DNA from: Archaeoglobus sp.
GTDB lineage: Archaea > Halobacteriota > Archaeoglobi > Archaeoglobales > Archaeoglobaceae
Reading direction: 5' to 3'
Assembly (NCBI RefSeq): GCF_017656475.1
Contig: NZ_JACDNT010000013.1
Coordinates: forward strand, 1 to 52,985
DNA: 52,985 nucleotides
In this document: piece by piece, positions 3,309-45,823 of the stretch
Position numbering within the stretch: position 1 is the first letter of the stretch
How the letters are laid out: every line of letters begins with the position of its first letter
Translations under genes and position numbers: made by a program
Notes under the pieces: generated by a model
What the model saw: the letters and a program-made list of their open reading frames with translations, nothing else
What the model was told of the DNA's origin: nothing
Databases searched by the model: none

Positions 3309-4025
3309 TCACAATCTTCTCAACAAAGCGTGCTCATGAAGCTTAATTGCTAATACTAAAAACCCAATCGAGAACCCAGCTAAAATGATGAAATCGAGGT
3401 AAATCGGTAGAAAAGGGCTCATTCCGAACGAATCCCTTGCTATATCCGTGAAATACGTGAGAGGAGAGATCATTGAAACAACCTTTCCCCAGGCTGGAAG
3501 CTCCTGAACAGGGATGAAAATCCCGCTTACGAATATCAGCGGAAAGCGAACAAGCGATGAGATCATCATGACCGTCGAGGGCAGGTTTGTCGGATAGGCT
3601 GAAAACAGCAATCCCAGGCAGGAGAAGCAAAAGGTAGCCAGAAGTATTGCAGGAATTATGACAGGATTTGGAGTAAATCCGAGGCAAAATGCCAAGAGCA
3701 ATGGGATGAAGGACATGCAAATTCCAAAGGACAACGAGGCGATAATGTCTCCAAAAATGATTGTTGATGTTGAGACGGGGCATGCGAGCAGCCTTTCAAG
3801 CGTTCTCATCTGTCCTTCCCACGGAGCTATAACCGGTGAGACGGAAGTTGAGGCGAAGAAGACGGTCATTGAAATCAACCCTGCCATCAAAAAATTCAAG
3901 GGAAGATCTCTGCCAATCCAGAAGGCTAAAAATAGGAATAAAGGTAGCAGAATGCCAAAAATTACAACTGGCCCTTTCAAATAATACATCATTATATCCT
4001 TCTTCGCAATTGCCAGGCATTTCAT
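3309..4025 (-). CDS. ABC-2 type transporter permease
   Basis: The protein has 238 residues and six or so hydrophobic segments. It starts MKCLAIAKKDIMMYYLKGPV, the usual amphipathic lead-in of ABC-2 permeases, and contains TPLTYFTDIARDSFG near the end, matching the conserved P-x-x-Y-x-x-x-x-x-R region of the family. Its start overlaps the stop of the ATPase gene by 4 bases (4022-4025), so the two are translated together and form one exporter. The cargo cannot be told; DrrB-like drug or lipid export and NatB-like functions are all possible. Confidence 0.88.
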   Translation of the reverse strand: MKCLAIAKKDIMMYYLKGPVVIFGILLPLFLFLAFWIGRDLPLNFLMAGLISMTVFFASTSVSPVIAPWEGQMRTLERLLACPVSTSTIIFGDIIASLSFGICMSFIPLLLAFCLGFTPNPVIIPAILLATFCFSCLGLLFSAYPTNLPSTVMMISSLVRFPLIFVSGIFIPVQELPAWGKVVSMISPLTYFTDIARDSFGMSPFLPIYLDFIILAGFSIGFLVLAIKLHEHALLRRL

Positions 4026-4924
4026 CCTTCTGCCTCCAAGAGCTTTAAAAAGGCATCCTCAAGCGTTGGGGTTCGAGTGTTGATTGAGACTATCTCTGCA
4101 CTGCTCTTTCTCGCAAAGTCAACTACCTCGCAGATCGTTTTGTATGGGTCGGTTGTGTATATCACGTATTTGTCTCCTACTTTCTCCGCATTCTCTATGT
4201 TCAGCTCCACCTTACCTCCAAAACTCACTTCAATCGCAACACTTCCGCCAACTCTGCTCTTCAGTCTCTCAGGAGTGTCTATCGTAACGATTTTGCCCCT
4301 GTTTATTATCGCAATCCTGTCGCACATCATATTTACCTCATCCATGTTGTGAGAAGTAAGAAAGACCGTTTTTCTTTCATTTGCTATCTCCAAAATCTTT
4401 TCTCTTATCATCCTCGCACTCTGGACATCTAAGCCGCTTGTAGGCTCATCCAAGAACAAAATTTCCGGATCACTTATCAGAGCCATGCAGAGCATCAGTC
4501 TCTGTTTCATGCCTTTAGAGAATCCTCTAACCTTTGCATCTTTCCGCTCATAAATTCCAAACTCTTTGAGCAATTCGTTAGCTCTCGCCTCTGCATCTCT
4601 TTTACGCATCCCGTAAAGGCTTGCGATGAGCATTATGTTCTGCCAGGCTGTTAAATCAGGATATGCGTTTGACACTTCTGGCAGAACTCCGATTGACTCC
4701 TTGGCCTTCAGAGTCTCCTCAACAACATCGTAGCCGTTCACTCTCGCTTTTCCAAAGTCTGGCTTTATTATGCCTGTCAGAATCCTAACAGTAGTGGTTT
4801 TACCGGCTCCGTTTGGACCGAGAAAACCGAAAATCTCCCCTCTTTTCACCTTAAACGATACACCTTTCAGAGCTTCAACATCGCCAAACCTCTTCTTTAG
4901 ATCTTCAGCCTCTATTGCCATCAT
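4022..4924 (-). CDS. ABC transporter ATP-binding protein (DrrA/CcmA-like)
   Basis: The protein has 300 residues. Walker A GPNGAGKT is at 36-43, the signature FSKGMKQ at about 135-141, Walker B ILFLDEP at 155-161, followed by SGLD and the switch His in LTSHNMDE. The tail of about 80 residues after the nucleotide-binding domain is typical of DrrA-like exporters. It drives the permease encoded at 3309-4025. The start is ATGATG at 4924-4919; the first ATG overlaps the stop of a 16-codon ORF (4921-4971), so either Met could be used, by coupled translation. Confidence 0.92.
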   Translation of the reverse strand: MMAIEAEDLKKRFGDVEALKGVSFKVKRGEIFGFLGPNGAGKTTTVRILTGIIKPDFGKARVNGYDVVEETLKAKESIGVLPEVSNAYPDLTAWQNIMLIASLYGMRKRDAEARANELLKEFGIYERKDAKVRGFSKGMKQRLMLCMALISDPEILFLDEPTSGLDVQSARMIREKILEIANERKTVFLTSHNMDEVNMMCDRIAIINRGKIVTIDTPERLKSRVGGSVAIEVSFGGKVELNIENAEKVGDKYVIYTTDPYKTICEVVDFARKSSAEIVSINTRTPTLEDAFLKLLEAEG

Positions 4925-4971
4925 TCTCCCACCAGAGGAAAAGATAATTTTGGTATAGCTTCAATAACCAT
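4921..4971 (-). other. 16-codon ORF coupled to the ABC ATPase gene; napH 5'-end remnant
   Basis: On the minus strand ATG at 4971 gives MVIEAIPKLSFPLVGE and a TGA that overlaps the ATPase ATG (ATGA). The first eight codons nearly repeat the start of the NapH-like gene (MVVEAIPK), including its upstream ribosome site. It looks like a leftover from a deleted copy of that gene that now leads translation into the ABC genes. Whether the peptide is made is unknown. Confidence 0.55.
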
Positions 4972-4993
4972 TTTATTCACTTCCTTCCATCCA
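4947..4993 (-). repeat. Imperfect 46-base repeat of the permease/napH junction at 5817-5864
   Basis: Bases 4947-4993 match 5817-5864 with about three substitutions and one indel. The copy covers the last codons of the upstream permease (minus-strand reading LGWKEV), the ribosome binding site and the first eight codons of the NapH-like gene. Similarity stops abruptly on both sides. It marks a lost second copy of that operon or a recombination scar. Confidence 0.8.
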
Positions 4994-5033
4994 ATTAAGC
5001 AATGAATAGAAGTGATGCTTGTGATGGCAAATG

Positions 5034-5057
5034 TTAAGCGCAACAATAGACGCTTAA
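5034..5057. terminator. Inverted repeat after the NapH-like gene
   Basis: TTAAGCG (5034-5040) pairs perfectly with CGCTTAA (5051-5057) across a 10-base loop. It lies about 30 bases after the stop of the minus-strand operon, so a terminator or mRNA-end hairpin is likely. An operator for the downstream ABC genes is the alternative. No long T run follows on the minus strand. Confidence 0.35.
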
Positions 5058-5087
5058 ATCGCATTCTTCACACCTCCACTTCTTTGC

Positions 5088-5840
5088 TTAAAAATTATTC
5101 CTACTGTATTCAATCGCATTAACAGGGCAAGCATCTACACACCTATTGCACAGATAACATTCAAGTTTCGCATCGCCGTCTGCCTCGTTTGTAGGACAGG
5201 CTCTCTCGCATTTTTTACAGTTTATGCAACTATCATTTCGCCGCAGTTTGAACAGACTTCTGGCGGAAGCCAGAGATAGCAGCACACCGTATGGACAGAA
5301 AAATCGACAAAATGGTCTATAAATGACAGCAGATATCACCAACAGCACCAAAAAGACGTAGAAAAAAGGTGACGTAATATTTAGGTAAAAGAAATCACGA
5401 AATCCGAGATATGTAAGAATTCCCACTGAAAAAACAAGACCAAAAAAGAGGAACACGATAAAAAAGAGTAAATGAACCGGTAGAGTTTTGCTTGTAATTC
5501 TCAGCTTCTTTACAGGTGCACTGTAAACTAATTCCTGTATCGCTCCGATGGGGCAAAGATAACCGCAAAAAATCCTGCCGAACACAAATGTCAGAACGAT
5601 AAACAGCAAAAAACCCACGATTGCAACCTGATTCTCCCACGCCTTACCGAGAATGAGCAGTTGGAACTGGTTTGGGAACATAGGTGCAAAAACGAGGAAT
5701 CCGACGATGGTTGAGGTAACAACAAAAAGATATCCAATTTTCCTGGTGAACCTATTTTTATAGAACAGGACGACTAAAATGAAAAATCCGATTATCGCAT
5801 AGATCATCCCAGTCATTTTTGGTATAGCTTCAACAACCAT
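5088..5840 (-). CDS. NapH/MauN-like membrane iron-sulfur protein
   Basis: The protein has 250 residues and about five membrane helices. It carries the two membrane-interface motifs CGYLCP (C92, C96) and CRFFCP (C178, C182) of the NapH/NosR/MauN group. A C-terminal ferredoxin domain has two 4Fe-4S sets, C205-C208-C211-C215 and C228-C231-C234-C238. Such proteins move electrons between the quinone pool and a partner. GGAGGTG lies 7 bases before the ATG at 5840. The start overlaps the preceding permease by 11 bases. Its partner here seems to be the two-piece permease upstream, an unusual pairing; the electron acceptor is unknown. Confidence 0.85.
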   Translation of the reverse strand: MVVEAIPKMTGMIYAIIGFFILVVLFYKNRFTRKIGYLFVVTSTIVGFLVFAPMFPNQFQLLILGKAWENQVAIVGFLLFIVLTFVFGRIFCGYLCPIGAIQELVYSAPVKKLRITSKTLPVHLLFFIVFLFFGLVFSVGILTYLGFRDFFYLNITSPFFYVFLVLLVISAVIYRPFCRFFCPYGVLLSLASARSLFKLRRNDSCINCKKCERACPTNEADGDAKLECYLCNRCVDACPVNAIEYSRNNF

Positions 5841-6387
5841 TTTCAGTCACCTCCTTCCATCCAAGTACTTTTTCAATAAATATACCCATAATTACAACGA
5901 AAATTATGGTCAAGGACAGTCGTGACAGCATGAACCGCACTCCAAGAAACTGAAGCTCCACCATTTCCTGCGGAACCTTTATGCATGCCCAAGCAGATAA
6001 GAAGACGACGATGTTGGATATTTTAGCGCCTTTTTTGAGTAACGCAGAAGCAATTGGAAAGGCAATATATAGTGGGCCGGTAGGTAATGTGCCAAGGATT
6101 ATGGCAAGGAAAATACCCTTTACACCGGATGTTTTTCCAAGATACCTCACAACAATATCTTTTGGCACCCATACTGCAAAAAGACCTAACATCACCATCA
6201 CTGCAGGAAGTATCAACATCATCTCAATGAAAAAATTCCATGATGTACTGAGTACTGGCTCTTTTTTATCTGGAAAGATGTAAAGAAGAGTTAACGTAAC
6301 AATTGAAATTACCCCTAATATAATCAAATCTCGTATTATCCCTTGTTTTTCTTTCATGTTTTTGTTTATCTTTTCTTGCTCACTCAT
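5830..6387 (-). CDS. ArsP/COG0701-type permease, second half-protein
   Basis: The protein has 185 residues, a charged N-terminus of about 18, then four or five hydrophobic helices. LGTLPTGPLYIAFPIASALL resembles the repeated T-x-P-x-x-x-A-x-P/F-x-A segment of ArsP-type permeases. Its length is about half of a normal single-chain permease (300-350), and with the 160-residue protein just upstream (4-base overlap at 6384-6387) the pair adds up to one full-length transporter. That suggests a naturally split, two-subunit permease. Substrate unknown: organoarsenicals and thiols are transported by known relatives. Confidence 0.72.
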   Translation of the reverse strand: MSEQEKINKNMKEKQGIIRDLIILGVISIVTLTLLYIFPDKKEPVLSTSWNFFIEMMLILPAVMVMLGLFAVWVPKDIVVRYLGKTSGVKGIFLAIILGTLPTGPLYIAFPIASALLKKGAKISNIVVFLSAWACIKVPQEMVELQFLGVRFMLSRLSLTIIFVVIMGIFIEKVLGWKEVTENGC

Positions 6388-6866
6388 AGAATCGCCCCCA
6401 TAATGAGCGCAATTATAATTGCGATAACGAAGCTAATACTATTTCGTAGAAGTGCTATACTCTTCCCGAGTTCTCTTATCTCCAGAGGTAACGTGGCTAT
6501 TCCAACCATAGTCAATGTGGTGATAAAAGCAGCAACCACACCCACTCCTGCCCCATTCTCTAGGAGGGATGCAGCTAAAGGGAATGCCAATAGGGAAGGG
6601 ATGTGCATTAGCGCACCAACTGCACCCACAAGCAACACACCCCATAATCCAGACTGCTCGCCCGCAAATCTTGATATTTGATCAGGTGGTGTAAATCCAA
6701 GCAGTAAACCGATGACAAGTATGATTACTAAGACCAGTGGAAGTATTCTGATGAAAGATTTCCCAGCTATTTTGAGAGATTGTATTGTCTTTTCCTTATC
6801 TTTGATAAACGCTATCGAAAGAGCAACGATGGCTATACCATTGATGAGAATTGCAGTAACGGACAT
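6384..6866 (-). CDS. ArsP/COG0701-type permease, first half-protein
   Basis: The protein has 160 residues and four or five helices. ALMHIPSLLAFPLAASLLENG followed by TLTMVGIATLPLEIRELG matches one half of the inverted repeat of ArsP-type permeases, where these loops line the pore. It starts one base before the stop of the regulator gene at 6867-7229 and overlaps the next gene by ATGA. Both halves are intact, unlike the related gene decayed at 250-694. Neither half shows the CxC motif of some family members. Confidence 0.72.
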   Translation of the reverse strand: MSVTAILINGIAIVALSIAFIKDKEKTIQSLKIAGKSFIRILPLVLVIILVIGLLLGFTPPDQISRFAGEQSGLWGVLLVGAVGALMHIPSLLAFPLAASLLENGAGVGVVAAFITTLTMVGIATLPLEIRELGKSIALLRNSISFVIAIIIALIMGAIL

Positions 6867-41203: not shown

Positions 41204-42130
41204 TTATCCGAGTTCTCCGGCCAAGCCTCTTAGCCTGACCCTCATCCTCTTCGACTTCTCAAGGACTTCGGCAAAATCTGAGTTTTCCATTATATATATT
41301 TCGGTTTCCGGAATGCTTATGTTCGAAAGCATCTCAAACGCCTTTTCCCTCTTCTCCATAAACAGCCCTATCACCTCCGCCTCGCTCATTGCAGTGGAGC
41401 TGATTATCGCGATATCAGCGTGTTTCAGAGCGTACTCATTTCCGTTGAAGGCTATCGCCACACCTCCCATACTCCTGGCAACCTCAAACATCTTGTAGTC
41501 GGATATGCTATCCCCCACAACAACGGGAAAGTCGATACCCATCGACTCACAGTAATTCCTCATAATCTCCGCTTTCTCTCCAGCTCCAATTGCCTTAACC
41601 GATTCAACGATTTCTTTAACATCTTGGCGGGAAAAAAGTCTGTCAAGCTCTCTGAAAAGCTCTTCCCCGTTCAGCGAGGCTATGACGTCAATCATATCCA
41701 GTAATTCCTTTTTCAGGTTTTCTGGGAGGCTTATGCTATCAAAGTCCACCTCAGTGCCGTGCAAATCACCCTTAACGCCAATCATTTCCGCGGTCTTTTT
41801 CAGATACTGCGTGTAGGAAGTGGATATCACCACAGGCTTCCACTTCTCCTGCAACCTTGCCATCGCCTTCTCCGCATCCGGAACAAACCTTGCCGAAAGC
41901 TCAGCGATTCTCTCAACATCTCTGTTTTTTATCTCTGCCGCAGCAAGAAACGGTGTGAGGAGCTTCAGAGTGTATCCCGCCTCATATCCCTCCTTTTTAA
42001 CCTCATACGCCAGATAATCATCATACTCGCTGAGGTTACCGAAGAACCTCGCATTGTTGAAAACTGCCATGCAGAGTTCGAGGGCAAAGTCTGTGAGTAT
42101 CCATGGCCCTTCCCAGTCTGTGAAGAACAT
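41204..42130 (-). CDS. HAD-superfamily phosphatase-like protein (COG4030)
   Basis: From ATG 42130 the product has 308 residues. MFFTDWEGPWILTDFALELC has the first HAD motif with D-x-E-G in place of the normal D-x-D, then VVISTSYTQYLKKTAEMIG (motif II), and FPVVVGDSISDYKMFEVARS with AIAFNGNEYALKHADIAI (motifs III/IV). The substrate is unknown; archaeal relatives are annotated only as HAD-like. The longer reading to 42178 lacks family similarity at its front. It forms a pair with the ISF gene. Confidence 0.82.
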   Translation of the reverse strand: MFFTDWEGPWILTDFALELCMAVFNNARFFGNLSEYDDYLAYEVKKEGYEAGYTLKLLTPFLAAAEIKNRDVERIAELSARFVPDAEKAMARLQEKWKPVVISTSYTQYLKKTAEMIGVKGDLHGTEVDFDSISLPENLKKELLDMIDVIASLNGEELFRELDRLFSRQDVKEIVESVKAIGAGEKAEIMRNYCESMGIDFPVVVGDSISDYKMFEVARSMGGVAIAFNGNEYALKHADIAIISSTAMSEAEVIGLFMEKREKAFEMLSNISIPETEIYIMENSDFAEVLEKSKRMRVRLRGLAGELG

Positions 42131-42283
42131 GGTCTTTGTTCTTTCCCCAAAAGATAACTTTTGTGCTTGCTTTTTCAATTCACTTCCCCAAAAGTTTTCT
42201 ACCCATGAACCGCCTTAAACATCCAAATATCCTCTATTTTGAGGTTTGAAGAATAATTGACGAATTCTCGCTGTTTGCAACGA

Positions 42284-42751
42284 TCAACTAGACTTACGGC
42301 GGTCCGATCCAAAACACTTAATGTCATCACTCAGCCTAACGACTTTTTGCATCCCATTTCGATGCCTCACAACAATGTTCCGCGATTCAAGGTTTTTGAG
42401 TATTCTCGAAACAGTTGCGTGACTCAACTTGGTTCTTGCGACAATTTCGCTTTGATTCATCTCACCATGGTTCAGGAGACATTCAAGTACTTTTCTCTCA
42501 TTTAGGTCGAATAGATTCAAAAATTCATCTTTGAGAGCGACTGCAGAGTTTGGATTGTTATCTCTGTGTATAAAATACACAGCAACTAACAAAAGTCCCA
42601 CGAAATAGTTCAGCAGTAGCCCAATTAAAACTGCAAATGACCAGAAATAGGGATTCTTGCCTTTTCTTCTTGCATCATAGTAGATAACCGGCGGGATACT
42701 TAACACAGCAATCAGCACGATTAGTTCATACAAGCCTGGGATCACAAACAT
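42284..42751 (-). CDS. Membrane-tethered winged-helix regulator
   Basis: The protein has 155 residues. Two hydrophobic helices (ELIVLIAVLSIPPVIYY and FAVLIGLLLNYFVGLLLVAV) precede a winged helix at about 80-145: LNERKVLECLLNHGEMNQSE, IVARTKLSHATVSRILKNLE and RNGMQKVVRLS, a MarR/IclR-like DNA-binding unit. The layout, membrane part then HTH, suggests a sensor that controls genes from the membrane. It overlaps the FtsX-like permease gene by 10 bases and probably senses or controls that system. Confidence 0.82.
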   Translation of the reverse strand: MFVIPGLYELIVLIAVLSIPPVIYYDARRKGKNPYFWSFAVLIGLLLNYFVGLLLVAVYFIHRDNNPNSAVALKDEFLNLFDLNERKVLECLLNHGEMNQSEIVARTKLSHATVSRILKNLESRNIVVRHRNGMQKVVRLSDDIKCFGSDRRKSS

Positions 42752-43776
42752 TCACCTCTCTTTGTCGTAAGATATACGGCGACATAGGAGGTAGCTAAGG
42801 CTAAAGATAAAATTGTGATCAGCATTAAAATTGATTCTAACGAGATGTGGCCAAAAATTAATTTTATGATGGCAAGGCTCATTATTGAAGACATGAAAAG
42901 TGCTGAGGAGATGTACAACATAAACTGTGCACCAAGATATTTTAAAGGTATATTGAATCTAAATTTTTTAATATTGAACATGAAGAAATTTAATTCCGTT
43001 AATCCCACAATTACTGCTGCAAAAATTCCTGAAAATTTAGAAAGTACGTAGAATGTGTTGTGTTTCATCTCATCAATCTTTGCCTGTAGCTCTTTTAACC
43101 TTTCACTTCTGTAATATATGTCTACTGCAGCGGAACTGATTGTCTTTATATATTCATCACTTTTGTTAAGAGGTGTTTTAAGTTTTACATACGCCTCTCC
43201 AAAAAGGGCGTGTGTGGGAAGTCTATTTGAGTAATACTCCTTGAACTCTTCAGGATACTTCAGGATTATGTCTGCATCTGTGGTAAATGGAAATTCTGCT
43301 ATACCTGCAACAAGTAGTTCAACATTCTGGTTACCGTGCAATGGACGCAGTAATACAGTATCCCCTACTTTTAAATTGAGTTCTGTCGCCAAATTTTTAG
43401 AAATTATTACGCCAGCCCCATTCCCCCCTTCTATCAGCTTGGGGATATAGTTTGTCATATTCAGCTTATTGAGGTCGCTAATAAGGATTCCTGTAGCTCG
43501 ATGATTATTAAGGTTTAAATCTGCAATCAACACAAAAACCACCTCATCAACAAAACTTTTATTTGAAATTTCATTGACAAGACTCTCGTTTATCAGAGCC
43601 GTTACTTTTAAATCATAGTCTGAGCTAACGAGTGGAGCAAGCTTCTCCTGACAATACGAGGAGCCTAATTCACTATAGTACAACGAAGATGAGACCATTA
43701 ATGATAGCAACAGCATATTCAAAACAAATCTTTTTTTATTATTTCTTAGTTTAAAAATAAAAAATAATTTGTTCAT
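42742..43776 (-). CDS. FtsX/MacB-type permease
   Basis: The protein has 344 residues: one N-terminal helix (about 19-35), a large outer domain of about 210 residues with LNLKVGDTVLLRPLHGNQNV (MacB-PCD-like), then three C-terminal helices from about 245. This is the FtsX-like arrangement of LolC/MacB permeases that work by mechanotransmission with an ATPase; no ATPase gene is adjacent. It lies between a small exported peptide gene (16 bases upstream) and the membrane HTH gene, all on one strand, suggesting a peptide-export or resistance cassette. Base composition is more AT-rich than its neighbours. Confidence 0.78.
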   Translation of the reverse strand: MNKLFFIFKLRNNKKRFVLNMLLLSLMVSSSLYYSELGSSYCQEKLAPLVSSDYDLKVTALINESLVNEISNKSFVDEVVFVLIADLNLNNHRATGILISDLNKLNMTNYIPKLIEGGNGAGVIISKNLATELNLKVGDTVLLRPLHGNQNVELLVAGIAEFPFTTDADIILKYPEEFKEYYSNRLPTHALFGEAYVKLKTPLNKSDEYIKTISSAAVDIYYRSERLKELQAKIDEMKHNTFYVLSKFSGIFAAVIVGLTELNFFMFNIKKFRFNIPLKYLGAQFMLYISSALFMSSIMSLAIIKLIFGHISLESILMLITILSLALATSYVAVYLTTKRGECL

Positions 43777-43791
43777 GGTATCAACTCGACG

Positions 43792-44095
43792 TTACTCCAC
43801 ATACAAATAAGCTGTTGCAAAGTAGCCCCAAAGCGTTCCACCATGATCAGGATCTGCCCCGGCCTTCGCTACGTATGTGCCAGTGTCGGAGGCATAAGTC
43901 TCAACCTTTGCCCAGTATGTGTACGGCTCGAAGAAATTCCAGCCGCTCTGAACTATCTCCCATGCGCCACCAGGTATGACCTGACAATCTGCATGGTAGT
44001 GTATTTCTGGATTCCTTTTTGGCAAGTGTCGTGGCACTCGCGCACAGCACCAACCCTATTGCAACAATACACATAGCTAATTTTCTTATGGTCAC
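43792..44095 (-). pseudogene. Small exported peptide gene with one frameshift
   Basis: ATG at 44095 gives the signal peptide MTIRKLAMCIVAIGLVLCAS then ATTLAKK. In the A5 run near 44015-44020 the frame changes; read with one A less, it continues RNPEIHYHADCQVIPGGAWE, then a Trp/Tyr/Gly-rich mature part (FFEPYTYWAKVETYASDTGT, DHGGTLWGYFATAYLYVE) to 43792. The peptide would have about 100 residues, about 70 after processing. The GGxW start and WG..Y end recall lactococcin-972-like bacteriocins loosely. Either a mutation, a read error or a slipping site explains the break. Confidence 0.7.
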
Positions 44096-44345
44096 TTAGC
44101 AACACCTCTTTTTACTTGCAATGTGTGATGAAAAAGCAAATAACTTTTTCTTGAAAAAGCTGAAAAAACCGGAAACATAGTTTTTTGTGCTATCTTACAA
44201 ACATAATTGATGTATAACTTCTACCAGCTCCAAGAATCATCGATATGAAGCTTTTAAGGCCAAAATGCATTCCTTAGGGATAGTCATTATTCATGTTGAG
44301 ATGAATATTGTGTAAATGCTCTATACTTTTTTAAATAAAAAACTT

Positions 44346-44711
44346 TCAAAACTCTAATCCGTAAATTTCCTCAATCAGTTCAAGAAGCCTCCTTATTGCC
44401 CTCTCGCTTATTCTGACCTCATTCCGTCTGGGGCATACCGAATCTGCGATAACATCTTCACCATCAAAAACAGCGGGATAAAGTCTGCATCCCTCCGGGC
44501 GATGTTCGTAGATTCTGCATCTGTTGTGGGAGTCGAGGAAGAAGCATTTTCCGTTTACATTTCTCAGCCTTATGATTTTGCCATCCCTTACCGCGAAATC
44601 CCTTTTTGAATACCCCAAAGCCTCTATTCTGGCGATGTCTTCTTTAGTGAGGGGCATTTCTGTCTCAATGCAGCACTTCCCGCAAAAGGTGTTCCCATCA
44701 AAGCAATTCAC
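44346..44711 (-). CDS. YkgJ-family cysteine-rich (zinc/iron chelate) protein
   Basis: From GTG 44711 the product has 121 residues: VNCFDGNTFCGKCCIETEMP, later GKCFFLDSHNRCRIYEHRPE and GCRLYPAVF, then DSVCPRR. The C-x-x-C-C...C...C-x-I-Y-x-x-R-P-x-x-C-R-x-Y/F-P pattern defines the YkgJ/UPF0153 family, which binds zinc or an Fe-S cluster. The GTG overlaps the stop of the AsnB-like gene (GTGA), giving coupled translation; the longer ATG reading to 44774 is less likely. Confidence 0.86.
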   Translation of the reverse strand: MNCFDGNTFCGKCCIETEMPLTKEDIARIEALGYSKRDFAVRDGKIIRLRNVNGKCFFLDSHNRCRIYEHRPEGCRLYPAVFDGEDVIADSVCPRRNEVRISERAIRRLLELIEEIYGLEF

Positions 44712-45823
44712 AGATACTTCTTCAAAATCTTCGCCATTCCGGTTGAGTACTGAATTGCCTTCTTTTCCTTCCATGCTATCTCCCCTGGCAGGTAATTCTC
44801 GGCTATTTTTCTCAGAATGTACTTCCTTATAACCCTTCCATCTACTCTTCTCACTTTGTACTCCGGAGGTATTTTTATGGCCGCATCAATAACATCCCAT
44901 CTCAGATATGGCGTCACCAGCCTTATCTCACTCCTGTAAGCCAGTTTGTTGTCCCTGACGAGGTTTGAATCCCCTATGGACTTCAGGTCTCTTACGATAG
45001 CGTCTTCAAGCTCGTATTTGTCCATGCTCTCGTACCTCTTGTACCCGCCAAAAAGCTCGTCAGCACCCTGCCCGAAAACTATCTCCGTAAAACCGAGCGT
45101 TTTAGCAAACTGCATTGTAAGGTAAACGGGAACTGCAATTGAAAGCTGAAGGAAGTCGTCGGTTTCAACTGTTTTTATGACGGTCTGAACTGCGTCCCTT
45201 ATCTCATCCTCTCCAACCTTCAGTATCTCAATCTCCTTCCCGAGCATCTTTGCAGCTTCCCTGAGCCATTCCTCCTCAGCTTTGCTTGCAGTCACAGATA
45301 CAAGAGGGAGGTCGTAGAGGGCTGCGAGCAGCGACGAGTCAACCCCTCCAGAGAAGGCTATGCACCCAACTCCCGGTTTGTAGCTGCTCAGGGAGCTTAT
45401 AATCCTCTCAACCATCTCGTCAACATCGGCCTGTCCAACTTTAAAAACGTCCTCGAAAGTAAATTTTTTTCTCTCCTGAATCTCCCCTGTGTAGTCTATC
45501 TTGAGCACCTCTCCCGGCATTACCTCGTAAACCTCTCCGTCGATGTAAGATTTGAAGGATGAAATGCTCATGTCGCTGCCGTAGTATAGCGGTTTTCCGC
45601 CAAGAACATCGCGGGAGAGAAATATGTGAGAAGGACGGAATGCAACGACTGAGTAAAAAGACCTCAGCCTCAAAGGCATCTCGTCAGCATATTTCAAGTT
45701 TGGAACTTCCTCCGAGTCGAAGAAGATGTTTCCTTCCTGCCTTGAGGGATACCTTGCACTCGCGTAGATCCTGCTTGCCCTTCTGCTCTCGCCATCAAAC
45801 TCTGGAAATGCATATATTGCCAC
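44708..45823 (-). CDS. asnB: Asparagine synthase-like enzyme lacking the glutaminase cysteine
   Basis: The protein has 371 residues against 480-600 for usual AsnB. The synthase part is intact: PP-loop CIAFSGGVDSSLLAALYD at about 155, VFGQGADELFGGYKRYE and EIRLVTPYLRWDVIDAAIKI. The front is a shortened GATase2-like domain (LRSFYSVVAFRPSHIFLSRD, then GGKPLYYG), but residue 2 is Ala and not the nucleophilic Cys, so it cannot use glutamine itself. It may use ammonia, or make another amide. It is coupled to the YkgJ-like gene. Confidence 0.85.
   Translation of the reverse strand: MAIYAFPEFDGESRRASRIYASARYPSRQEGNIFFDSEEVPNLKYADEMPLRLRSFYSVVAFRPSHIFLSRDVLGGKPLYYGSDMSISSFKSYIDGEVYEVMPGEVLKIDYTGEIQERKKFTFEDVFKVGQADVDEMVERIISSLSSYKPGVGCIAFSGGVDSSLLAALYDLPLVSVTASKAEEEWLREAAKMLGKEIEILKVGEDEIRDAVQTVIKTVETDDFLQLSIAVPVYLTMQFAKTLGFTEIVFGQGADELFGGYKRYESMDKYELEDAIVRDLKSIGDSNLVRDNKLAYRSEIRLVTPYLRWDVIDAAIKIPPEYKVRRVDGRVIRKYILRKIAENYLPGEIAWKEKKAIQYSTGMAKILKKYL

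What the first reader, a model, noticed from the sequence alone, without database searches (positions are those of the whole stretch)
42284..44095. Exported peptide, FtsX-like permease and membrane HTH: a possible peptide-toxin or signalling cassette
A Trp/Tyr/Gly-rich secreted peptide (frameshifted here), a MacB/FtsX permease and a membrane-tethered DNA-binding protein lie head to tail in an AT-rich block. Lactococcin-972-type bacteriocin loci likewise pair a small GGxW secreted peptide with an FtsX-like permease. No archaeal version is known to me.
Basis: inference. Interest (0 to 1): 0.72.

Follow-up and report, generated by a model that had tools for sequence, protein, structure and literature searches.

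The report
Decayed mobile exported-protein/permease/regulator cassette
An Archaeoglobus genome carries a small, horizontally acquired gene cassette for a rare exported protein, a transporter-like membrane protein and a membrane-anchored gene switch; the exported-protein gene is wrecked here and in most relatives while the other two genes mostly survive, as expected if the exported protein is a weapon or signal and the other two provide protection against it.

Summary
The three genes are real, but the "frameshifted peptide" is not a small peptide. In Archaeoglobi MAG S5B4_HD70 the intact protein has 172 aa. The window copy lost about 190-206 bp and is frameshifted, leaving the signal peptide and the last ~75 codons. 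The whole block (42169-44342, 2174 bp, 37.7% GC) is an insertion between two genes that abut in relatives. The cassette sits at different sites in four Archaeoglobus genomes.

Relatives suggest the original design: a methanogen carries exported protein (175 aa), FtsX-type permease and LolD/MacB-type ATPase in a row. The Archaeoglobus form has no ATPase gene in 4 of 4, a permease with eroded ATPase-coupling segments, and a two-TM winged-helix regulator. A 34-bp upstream element occurs exactly once in each of four carriers and in none of four non-carriers; it is probably the regulator's operator.

The exported gene was broken in at least three independent lines while permease and regulator (or ATPase) stayed open. 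I favour a toxin/signal plus receptor-immunity plus autoregulator cassette, logically like Bacillus SdpC-SdpI-SdpR, here reduced to a non-producer. Function is inferred. It is not a lactococcin-972 member by any test run.

The parts
42169..44342 (.). Inserted block (2174 bp, 37.7% GC); G003 and G001 carry the empty site with the two flanking genes adjacent
44129..44162 (-). Conserved 34-bp upstream element (two CTTTTTCA direct repeats around an AT-rich TATA-like centre), probable promoter/operator
   Evidence: once in each of 4 carrier genomes, none in 4 non-carriers, control pattern 0; unique in window, 0 expected; conserved where the surrounding DNA is not
44020..44095 (-). 5' remnant of exported-protein gene: GTG start and signal peptide (MTIRKLAMCIVAIGLVLCASATTLAK)
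44017..44025 (-). Junction of the internal deletion (~190-206 bp relative to relatives) with frameshift
43792..44016 (-). 3' remnant of exported-protein gene: last ~75 codons, open but out of frame with the signal peptide; 86-89% aa identity to relatives, dN/dS 0.03-0.12
42742..43776 (-). MacB/FtsX-like membrane protein, 344 aa, intact, probably 4 TM; no recognisable FtsX coupling motif, no ATPase gene beside it
42284..42751 (-). Membrane-anchored winged-helix regulator, 155 aa (two TM segments + MarR/DUF7343 wHTH), overlaps permease gene by 10 bp; last codons replaced by a deletion junction at 42315
42209..42267 (-). Remnant of a type IV pilin-like gene that follows the same cassette in G005 (L018 807-1238)
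44346..44774 (-). Upstream flank: CxxCxxCC-domain gene (not part of the cassette)
41204..42178 (-). Downstream flank: HAD-like phosphatase gene (not part of the cassette; its real start is probably below 42169)

Best explanation
SHOWN: the block is a horizontally acquired cassette that inserted between two adjacent genes. Its members elsewhere consist of an exported protein (~172 aa) + MacB/FtsX-like membrane protein + partner (ATPase in a methanogen and in a sister genus, membrane-anchored winged-helix regulator in this genus), in this genus with a private upstream element. In the window the exported gene is dead (internal deletion + frameshift); permease and regulator are open. INFERRED: the exported protein is a secreted antagonistic or signalling protein (cannibalism toxin/bacteriocin-like). 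The MacB-like protein, which in this genus appears to have lost its ATPase and both ATPase-coupling segments, acts as receptor and immunity protein rather than as a pump, binding the exported protein with its extracellular domain. The membrane-tethered wHTH represses the cassette through the upstream element and is released or re-positioned when the receptor is occupied, so protection is raised when the exported protein is present. This is the logic of SdpC-SdpI-SdpR. The window organism is then a non-producer that keeps sensing and immunity.
For: Association conserved across genera and orders. Exported gene strongly constrained where it was alive: dN/dS 0.03-0.12 with saturated or high dS. 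Asymmetric decay: exported gene broken by independent events in the window (~190-206-bp deletion), G007 (only signal peptide + last 11 codons left) and genus g2 (N-terminal half and signal peptide missing in G029; a further deletion in G008), while permease and HTH/ATPase stay open; joint chance of this order under length-proportional decay about 0.015 for three events. Permease/HTH dN/dS well below 1. The 34-bp element occurs once per carrier, never in non-carriers nor in the ATPase-type cassettes that lack the HTH, and brackets a TATA-like centre, ending 16-54 bp upstream of the likely start codons. ATPase absent in 4/4 cassettes of the genus, FtsX motif degenerate, ~11 residues fewer between TM2 and TM3 than in G029, C-terminal minor coupling segment missing. 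Cassettes sit at different sites and are far more diverged than host genes (win-G003 flank dS ~0.2, cassette dS saturated). Sdp logic and 'cheater' strains that keep immunity are documented (PMC1626106, PMC4739721).
Against: No toxicity, secretion, binding or regulation data exist. The exported protein matches no toxin family and its AlphaFold2 model failed (pLDDT 31). In G005 permease and HTH are also broken, so the pair is not always kept. The C-terminal domain of the exported protein is more conserved than the permease, which is unlike a fast-diversifying toxin. Carriers are few (about eight of several hundred genomes searched), so the decay statistic rests on three events. G003 and G005 are MAGs and the window genome is a 92-contig draft, so assembly errors at single bases cannot be excluded.
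Confidence: 0.4

Rival explanations
1. Degraded exporter cassette: the MacB-like permease (with an ATPase supplied in trans) secretes or extracts the exported protein or a product matured by it (surface protein, lipoprotein-like or adhesin), and the membrane HTH senses envelope stress. No conflict function; the window copy is simply decaying.
For: ATPase of the LolD/MacB class adjacent in G008, G029, G132; exported protein has its own Sec-type signal and a conserved C-terminal domain; a pilin-like gene follows the cassette in G005 and as a remnant in the window; the genus has ordinary FtsX-type permeases elsewhere.
Against: ATPase absent and coupling segments eroded in this genus although the permease is kept; the exported gene goes first while its supposed exporter is kept.
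Confidence: 0.25
2. Bacteriocin export/immunity cassette of the lactococcin-972 type: small peptide toxin + FtsX-like permease + ATPase.
For: Same gene order logic in G132, G029 and G008; their ATPases score well, but below cut-off, to the L_ocin_972_ABC model among many others.
Against: Exported protein is 172-175 aa, with no hit to the lactococcin-972 Pfam family or PDB entry; permease ~340-400 aa with no hit to the bacteriocin-associated membrane protein model; the ATPases score LolD higher.
Confidence: 0.07
3. Neutral junk: a cassette of a mobile element in late decay, with permease and regulator only not yet broken.
For: Two deletions in the window copy (44017-44025 and 42315), pilin remnant, fully broken G005 copy; the window deletion is younger than the split from G005 (dS ~0.5).
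Against: Same pair open in G007, with high divergence from the window (dS ~2.5-3) and dN/dS of 0.08-0.15; upstream element conserved in all four carriers; exported gene hit first in three independent lines.
Confidence: 0.23

Closest known systems
SdpC-SdpI-SdpR (Bacillus subtilis cannibalism toxin, immunity/receptor, autorepressor; PMC1626106)
   Same: Exported proteinaceous factor, polytopic membrane protein, HTH regulator, private operator; three-protein logic proposed here
   Different: No homology: no SdpI match, SdpR model only 25 bits against a cut-off of 100; here the regulator is itself membrane-anchored and the membrane protein is MacB-like; one operon instead of two
Lactococcin 972 cassette
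   Same: Exported protein followed by FtsX-like permease and, in relatives, an ATPase
   Different: No sequence match of exported protein or permease; protein size and permease size differ; ATPase replaced by a membrane wHTH in this genus
MacB/LolCDE/BceAB (type VII ABC transporters; PMC5985334)
   Same: Probable 4-TM topology with extracytoplasmic domain (weak MacB_PCD match); relatives have the ATPase; BceAB is a known sensing-plus-detoxification use of the fold
   Different: In the window's genus no ATPase, FtsX motif unrecognisable, minor coupling segment missing
Secreted-protein and ABC-transporter systems in archaeal 'dark matter' islands (PMC4158269)
   Same: Lineage-specific, variable, horizontally mobile secreted proteins with SalXY-like or other divergent ABC permeases, proposed to serve conflict or signalling
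   Different: This protein family and the ATPase-less permease + membrane wHTH pairing are not described in the text read
Bacteriocin 'cheater' loci (pneumococcal blp; PMC4739721)
   Same: Producer function lost by disruption while response and immunity are kept
   Different: Unrelated proteins; there the broken gene is the transporter, here the exported protein itself

Membership tests
Lactococcin 972 bacteriocin family | Exported peptide matches the family model or structure | tested here: not met
   No Pfam or NCBIfam family for the window fragment, G003 or G132 proteins; PDB profile search gives no lactococcin hit at E<=10
Lactococcin 972 bacteriocin family | Dedicated large permease (bacteriocin-associated integral membrane protein model) | tested here: not met
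   No such NCBIfam hit for window, G003, G007, G029 or G132 permeases
Lactococcin 972 bacteriocin family | Dedicated ATPase (TIGR03608) | tested here: not met
   No ATPase in the window cassette; in G029 and G132 the ATPase is below the cut-off (169 and 178 of 255 bits) and scores LolD higher
MacB/FtsX-type (type VII) ABC permease | MacB periplasmic core and 4-TM topology | tested here: inconclusive
   MacB_PCD 18.5 bits against a cut-off of 27; four long helices at the expected places in a low-confidence model and three to four hydrophobic segments; homologous to G029/G132 permeases, of which G132 passes PF02687
MacB/FtsX-type (type VII) ABC permease | FtsX domain with coupling helix and an ATPase partner | tested here: not met
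   No PF02687 match for window, G003 or G007 permeases; no ATPase gene in 4/4 cassettes
Sdp cannibalism system | SdpI and SdpR homology | tested here: not met
   No SdpI family for the permease; SdpR 25.2 bits against a cut-off of 100 for the HTH, as for many wHTH models
Sdp cannibalism system | Exported factor is toxic; membrane protein confers immunity and controls the repressor | not testable with these tools
   needs bench work
Membrane-anchored archaeal wHTH regulators (MarR/DUF7343) | wHTH above cut-off plus TM segments | tested here: met
   DUF7343 45.3 bits (cut-off 27.6), MarR 40 (24.6); two TM segments in 3/3 homologues

The most novel reading that the evidence does not exclude
An archaeal Sdp-like system in which an ABC permease has been turned into an ATP-independent receptor: a MacB-like protein without ATPase or coupling helices senses a secreted rival/self protein and passes the signal straight to a membrane-tethered winged-helix repressor encoded in the same overlapping operon.
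Probability: 0.25. Interest if true: 0.78.

Novelty: new variant of a known kind. Interest (0 to 1): 0.5.

Why it matters
To my knowledge archaeal antagonism systems with identified immunity and regulation are very few. Here one small family gives a comparison series: intact with ATPase (G132), intact with regulator instead of ATPase (G003), producer-minus (window, G007) and fully decayed (G005), plus a matched upstream element. That makes two questions directly testable: whether a MacB-type permease can serve as a receptor without ATP, and whether hyperthermophilic archaea show the toxin-loss/immunity-retention dynamics known from bacterial bacteriocins.

Tried and rejected
Simple homopolymer frameshift of a small peptide: rejected, about 200 bp are missing against two relatives. 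Lactococcin-972 membership: rejected on sequence tests. Defence-system membership: PADLOC gives only generic wHTH hits. Structure: AlphaFold2 on the exported protein (pLDDT 31) and permease (39) too poor to use; no fold search was run on them. Plasmid and viral carriers: none found for the exported family. Weak hits of the G132 exported protein in other Methanosarcinales-like genomes match essentially only the signal peptide and show no permease beside them: rejected. Terminal inverted repeats, integrase or tRNA target at the insertion: none found; only a 3-bp overlap at the junction, so the insertion mechanism is unknown. Weak permease hits in G013, G022 and G173 were judged generic.

Full report
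WHAT IS THERE. The window is contig 13 (52,985 bp) of a 2.04-Mb, 92-contig Archaeoglobus-like draft genome. On the minus strand lie, in order, a broken exported-protein gene (44095-43792), a 344-aa MacB/FtsX-like membrane protein (43776-42742) and a 155-aa protein with two N-terminal TM segments and a MarR/DUF7343 winged helix (42751-42284); the last two genes overlap by 10 bp.

THE 'PEPTIDE' IS A REMNANT. In Archaeoglobi MAG S5B4_HD70 (G003; JAPDIW010000017; Guaymas Basin enrichment, PMC10811742) the homologue is an intact 172-aa exported protein. Aligned DNA shows that the window copy keeps the signal peptide and the last ~75 codons and lacks about 190-206 bp between them, with the two parts in different frames. 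The copy in S5B9_HD70 (G005) has both halves but a frameshift. G007 keeps only a signal peptide and the last 11 codons (GYFATAYLYVS) between the upstream element and an intact permease. In a second genus G029 lacks the N-terminal half and the signal peptide, and G008 has a further internal deletion. The window deletion postdates its split from G005, which still has the deleted part, so it is independent of the G007 event.

IT IS AN INSERTION. The CxxCxxCC gene and the HAD gene that flank the block lie next to each other in G001, G003 and G004. BLASTN against the empty sites of G003 and G001 puts the insertion at 42169-44342 with only 3 bp of junction overlap; its GC is 37.7% against 48%. No terminal repeats or tRNA were found. 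The cassettes of window, G003, G005 and G007 have four different neighbourhoods. Between window and G003 host flank genes differ by dS ~0.2 while the cassette is saturated at synonymous sites, so the cassettes were acquired separately.

ANCESTRAL DESIGN. A profile of the permeases finds only nine genomes out of 393 of the phylum, and a profile of the exported proteins only six. The most telling relative is a methanogen-like genome, G132 (and its sister G475): G132 has a 175-aa exported protein, a 402-aa permease that passes PF02687 and a 227-aa LolD/MacB-type ATPase in a row. Homology of the exported proteins is supported by profile comparison (probability 91%, E 1e-6) and by synteny, though not by plain BLASTP (E 0.06); homology of the permeases (E 6e-16) and, weakly. 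G008 and G029 have the same three-gene order. That the ATPase form is ancestral is inferred from its wider spread.

WHAT CHANGED IN THIS GENUS. None of the four Archaeoglobus cassettes has an ATPase gene beside it (G005 is split over two contigs). Their permeases give no PF02687 match; the segment between TM2 and TM3 is about 11 residues shorter than in G029 and no longer shows the GAS-containing coupling pattern of relatives or of true FtsX proteins in the same genomes; and the C-terminal segment that would form the minor coupling helix is missing (coupling helices as described in PMC5985334). How the shortened segment aligns is uncertain at ~22% identity. In place of the ATPase stands the membrane wHTH. 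Upstream, a 34-bp element with two CTTTTTCA repeats around a TATA-like centre is found exactly once in each of the four carriers, not in four non-carrier genomes, not with the reversed control pattern, and not around the ATPase-type cassettes.

SELECTION AND DECAY. The exported C-terminal domain has dN/dS 0.03-0.12 between species, the permease 0.09-0.23 and the regulator about 0.08 where dS can be estimated. Loss is asymmetric: three independent lines lost the exported gene first. If hits fell in proportion to gene length the joint chance would be about 0.015. The sample is small, and G005 has lost everything. A second deletion in the window fused the regulator's last codons to a fragment of a pilin-like gene.

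HOW IT PROBABLY WORKS. Shown: mobile cassette, conserved pairing, no ATPase and eroded coupling segments, private upstream element, producer-gene loss. Inferred: the exported protein is an antagonistic or signalling protein, the MacB-like protein its receptor and immunity factor, and the wHTH an autoregulator released on occupancy, as in SdpC-SdpI-SdpR (PMC1626106). The window strain would be a non-producer that keeps protection, like bacteriocin cheater strains (PMC4739721). Related wHTH proteins elsewhere in the family sit directly beside other exported proteins (G039, G011), which suggests a recurring exported-protein/membrane-regulator theme.

COMPARISON WITH KNOWN. Not lactococcin 972 by sequence. 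It fits the general class of secreted-protein and ABC-transporter systems noted in archaeal dark-matter islands (PMC4158269), but I found no description of this family or of the ATPase-less permease + membrane wHTH pairing in the papers held. A relevant 2019 paper on archaeal antimicrobial peptides and toxins (known to me from memory) was not held, so prior mention cannot be excluded.

Noticed in passing
L015 (G003:C10) 3963-5180 and 6289-6696: Next to the intact cassette lie two proteins sharing a caspase/gingipain-like 'YSGHGN' motif, the first with a weak PepSY/YcdB-like N-terminus; together with the cassette they look like an island of exported proteins.
   Followed up: partly
L019 (G029:C1:210000-229000): The related cassette sits in a dense island of predicted exported proteins, with a transposase and a membrane-associated wHTH protein.
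   Followed up: partly
L054 (G039), L056 (G011): Homologous wHTH genes lie directly downstream of a different ~261-aa exported protein family in other members of the family: a second exported-protein + membrane-wHTH pair without permease.
   Followed up: partly
G007:C27:46243-46398: A second, broken copy of the cassette's wHTH (77% identity over 52 aa, one TAG) without a second upstream element.
   Followed up: no
window 42209-42267: Remnant of a type IV pilin-like gene that is intact after the cassette in G005 (L018 807-1238, Pilin_N 21 bits, below cut-off).
   Followed up: yes
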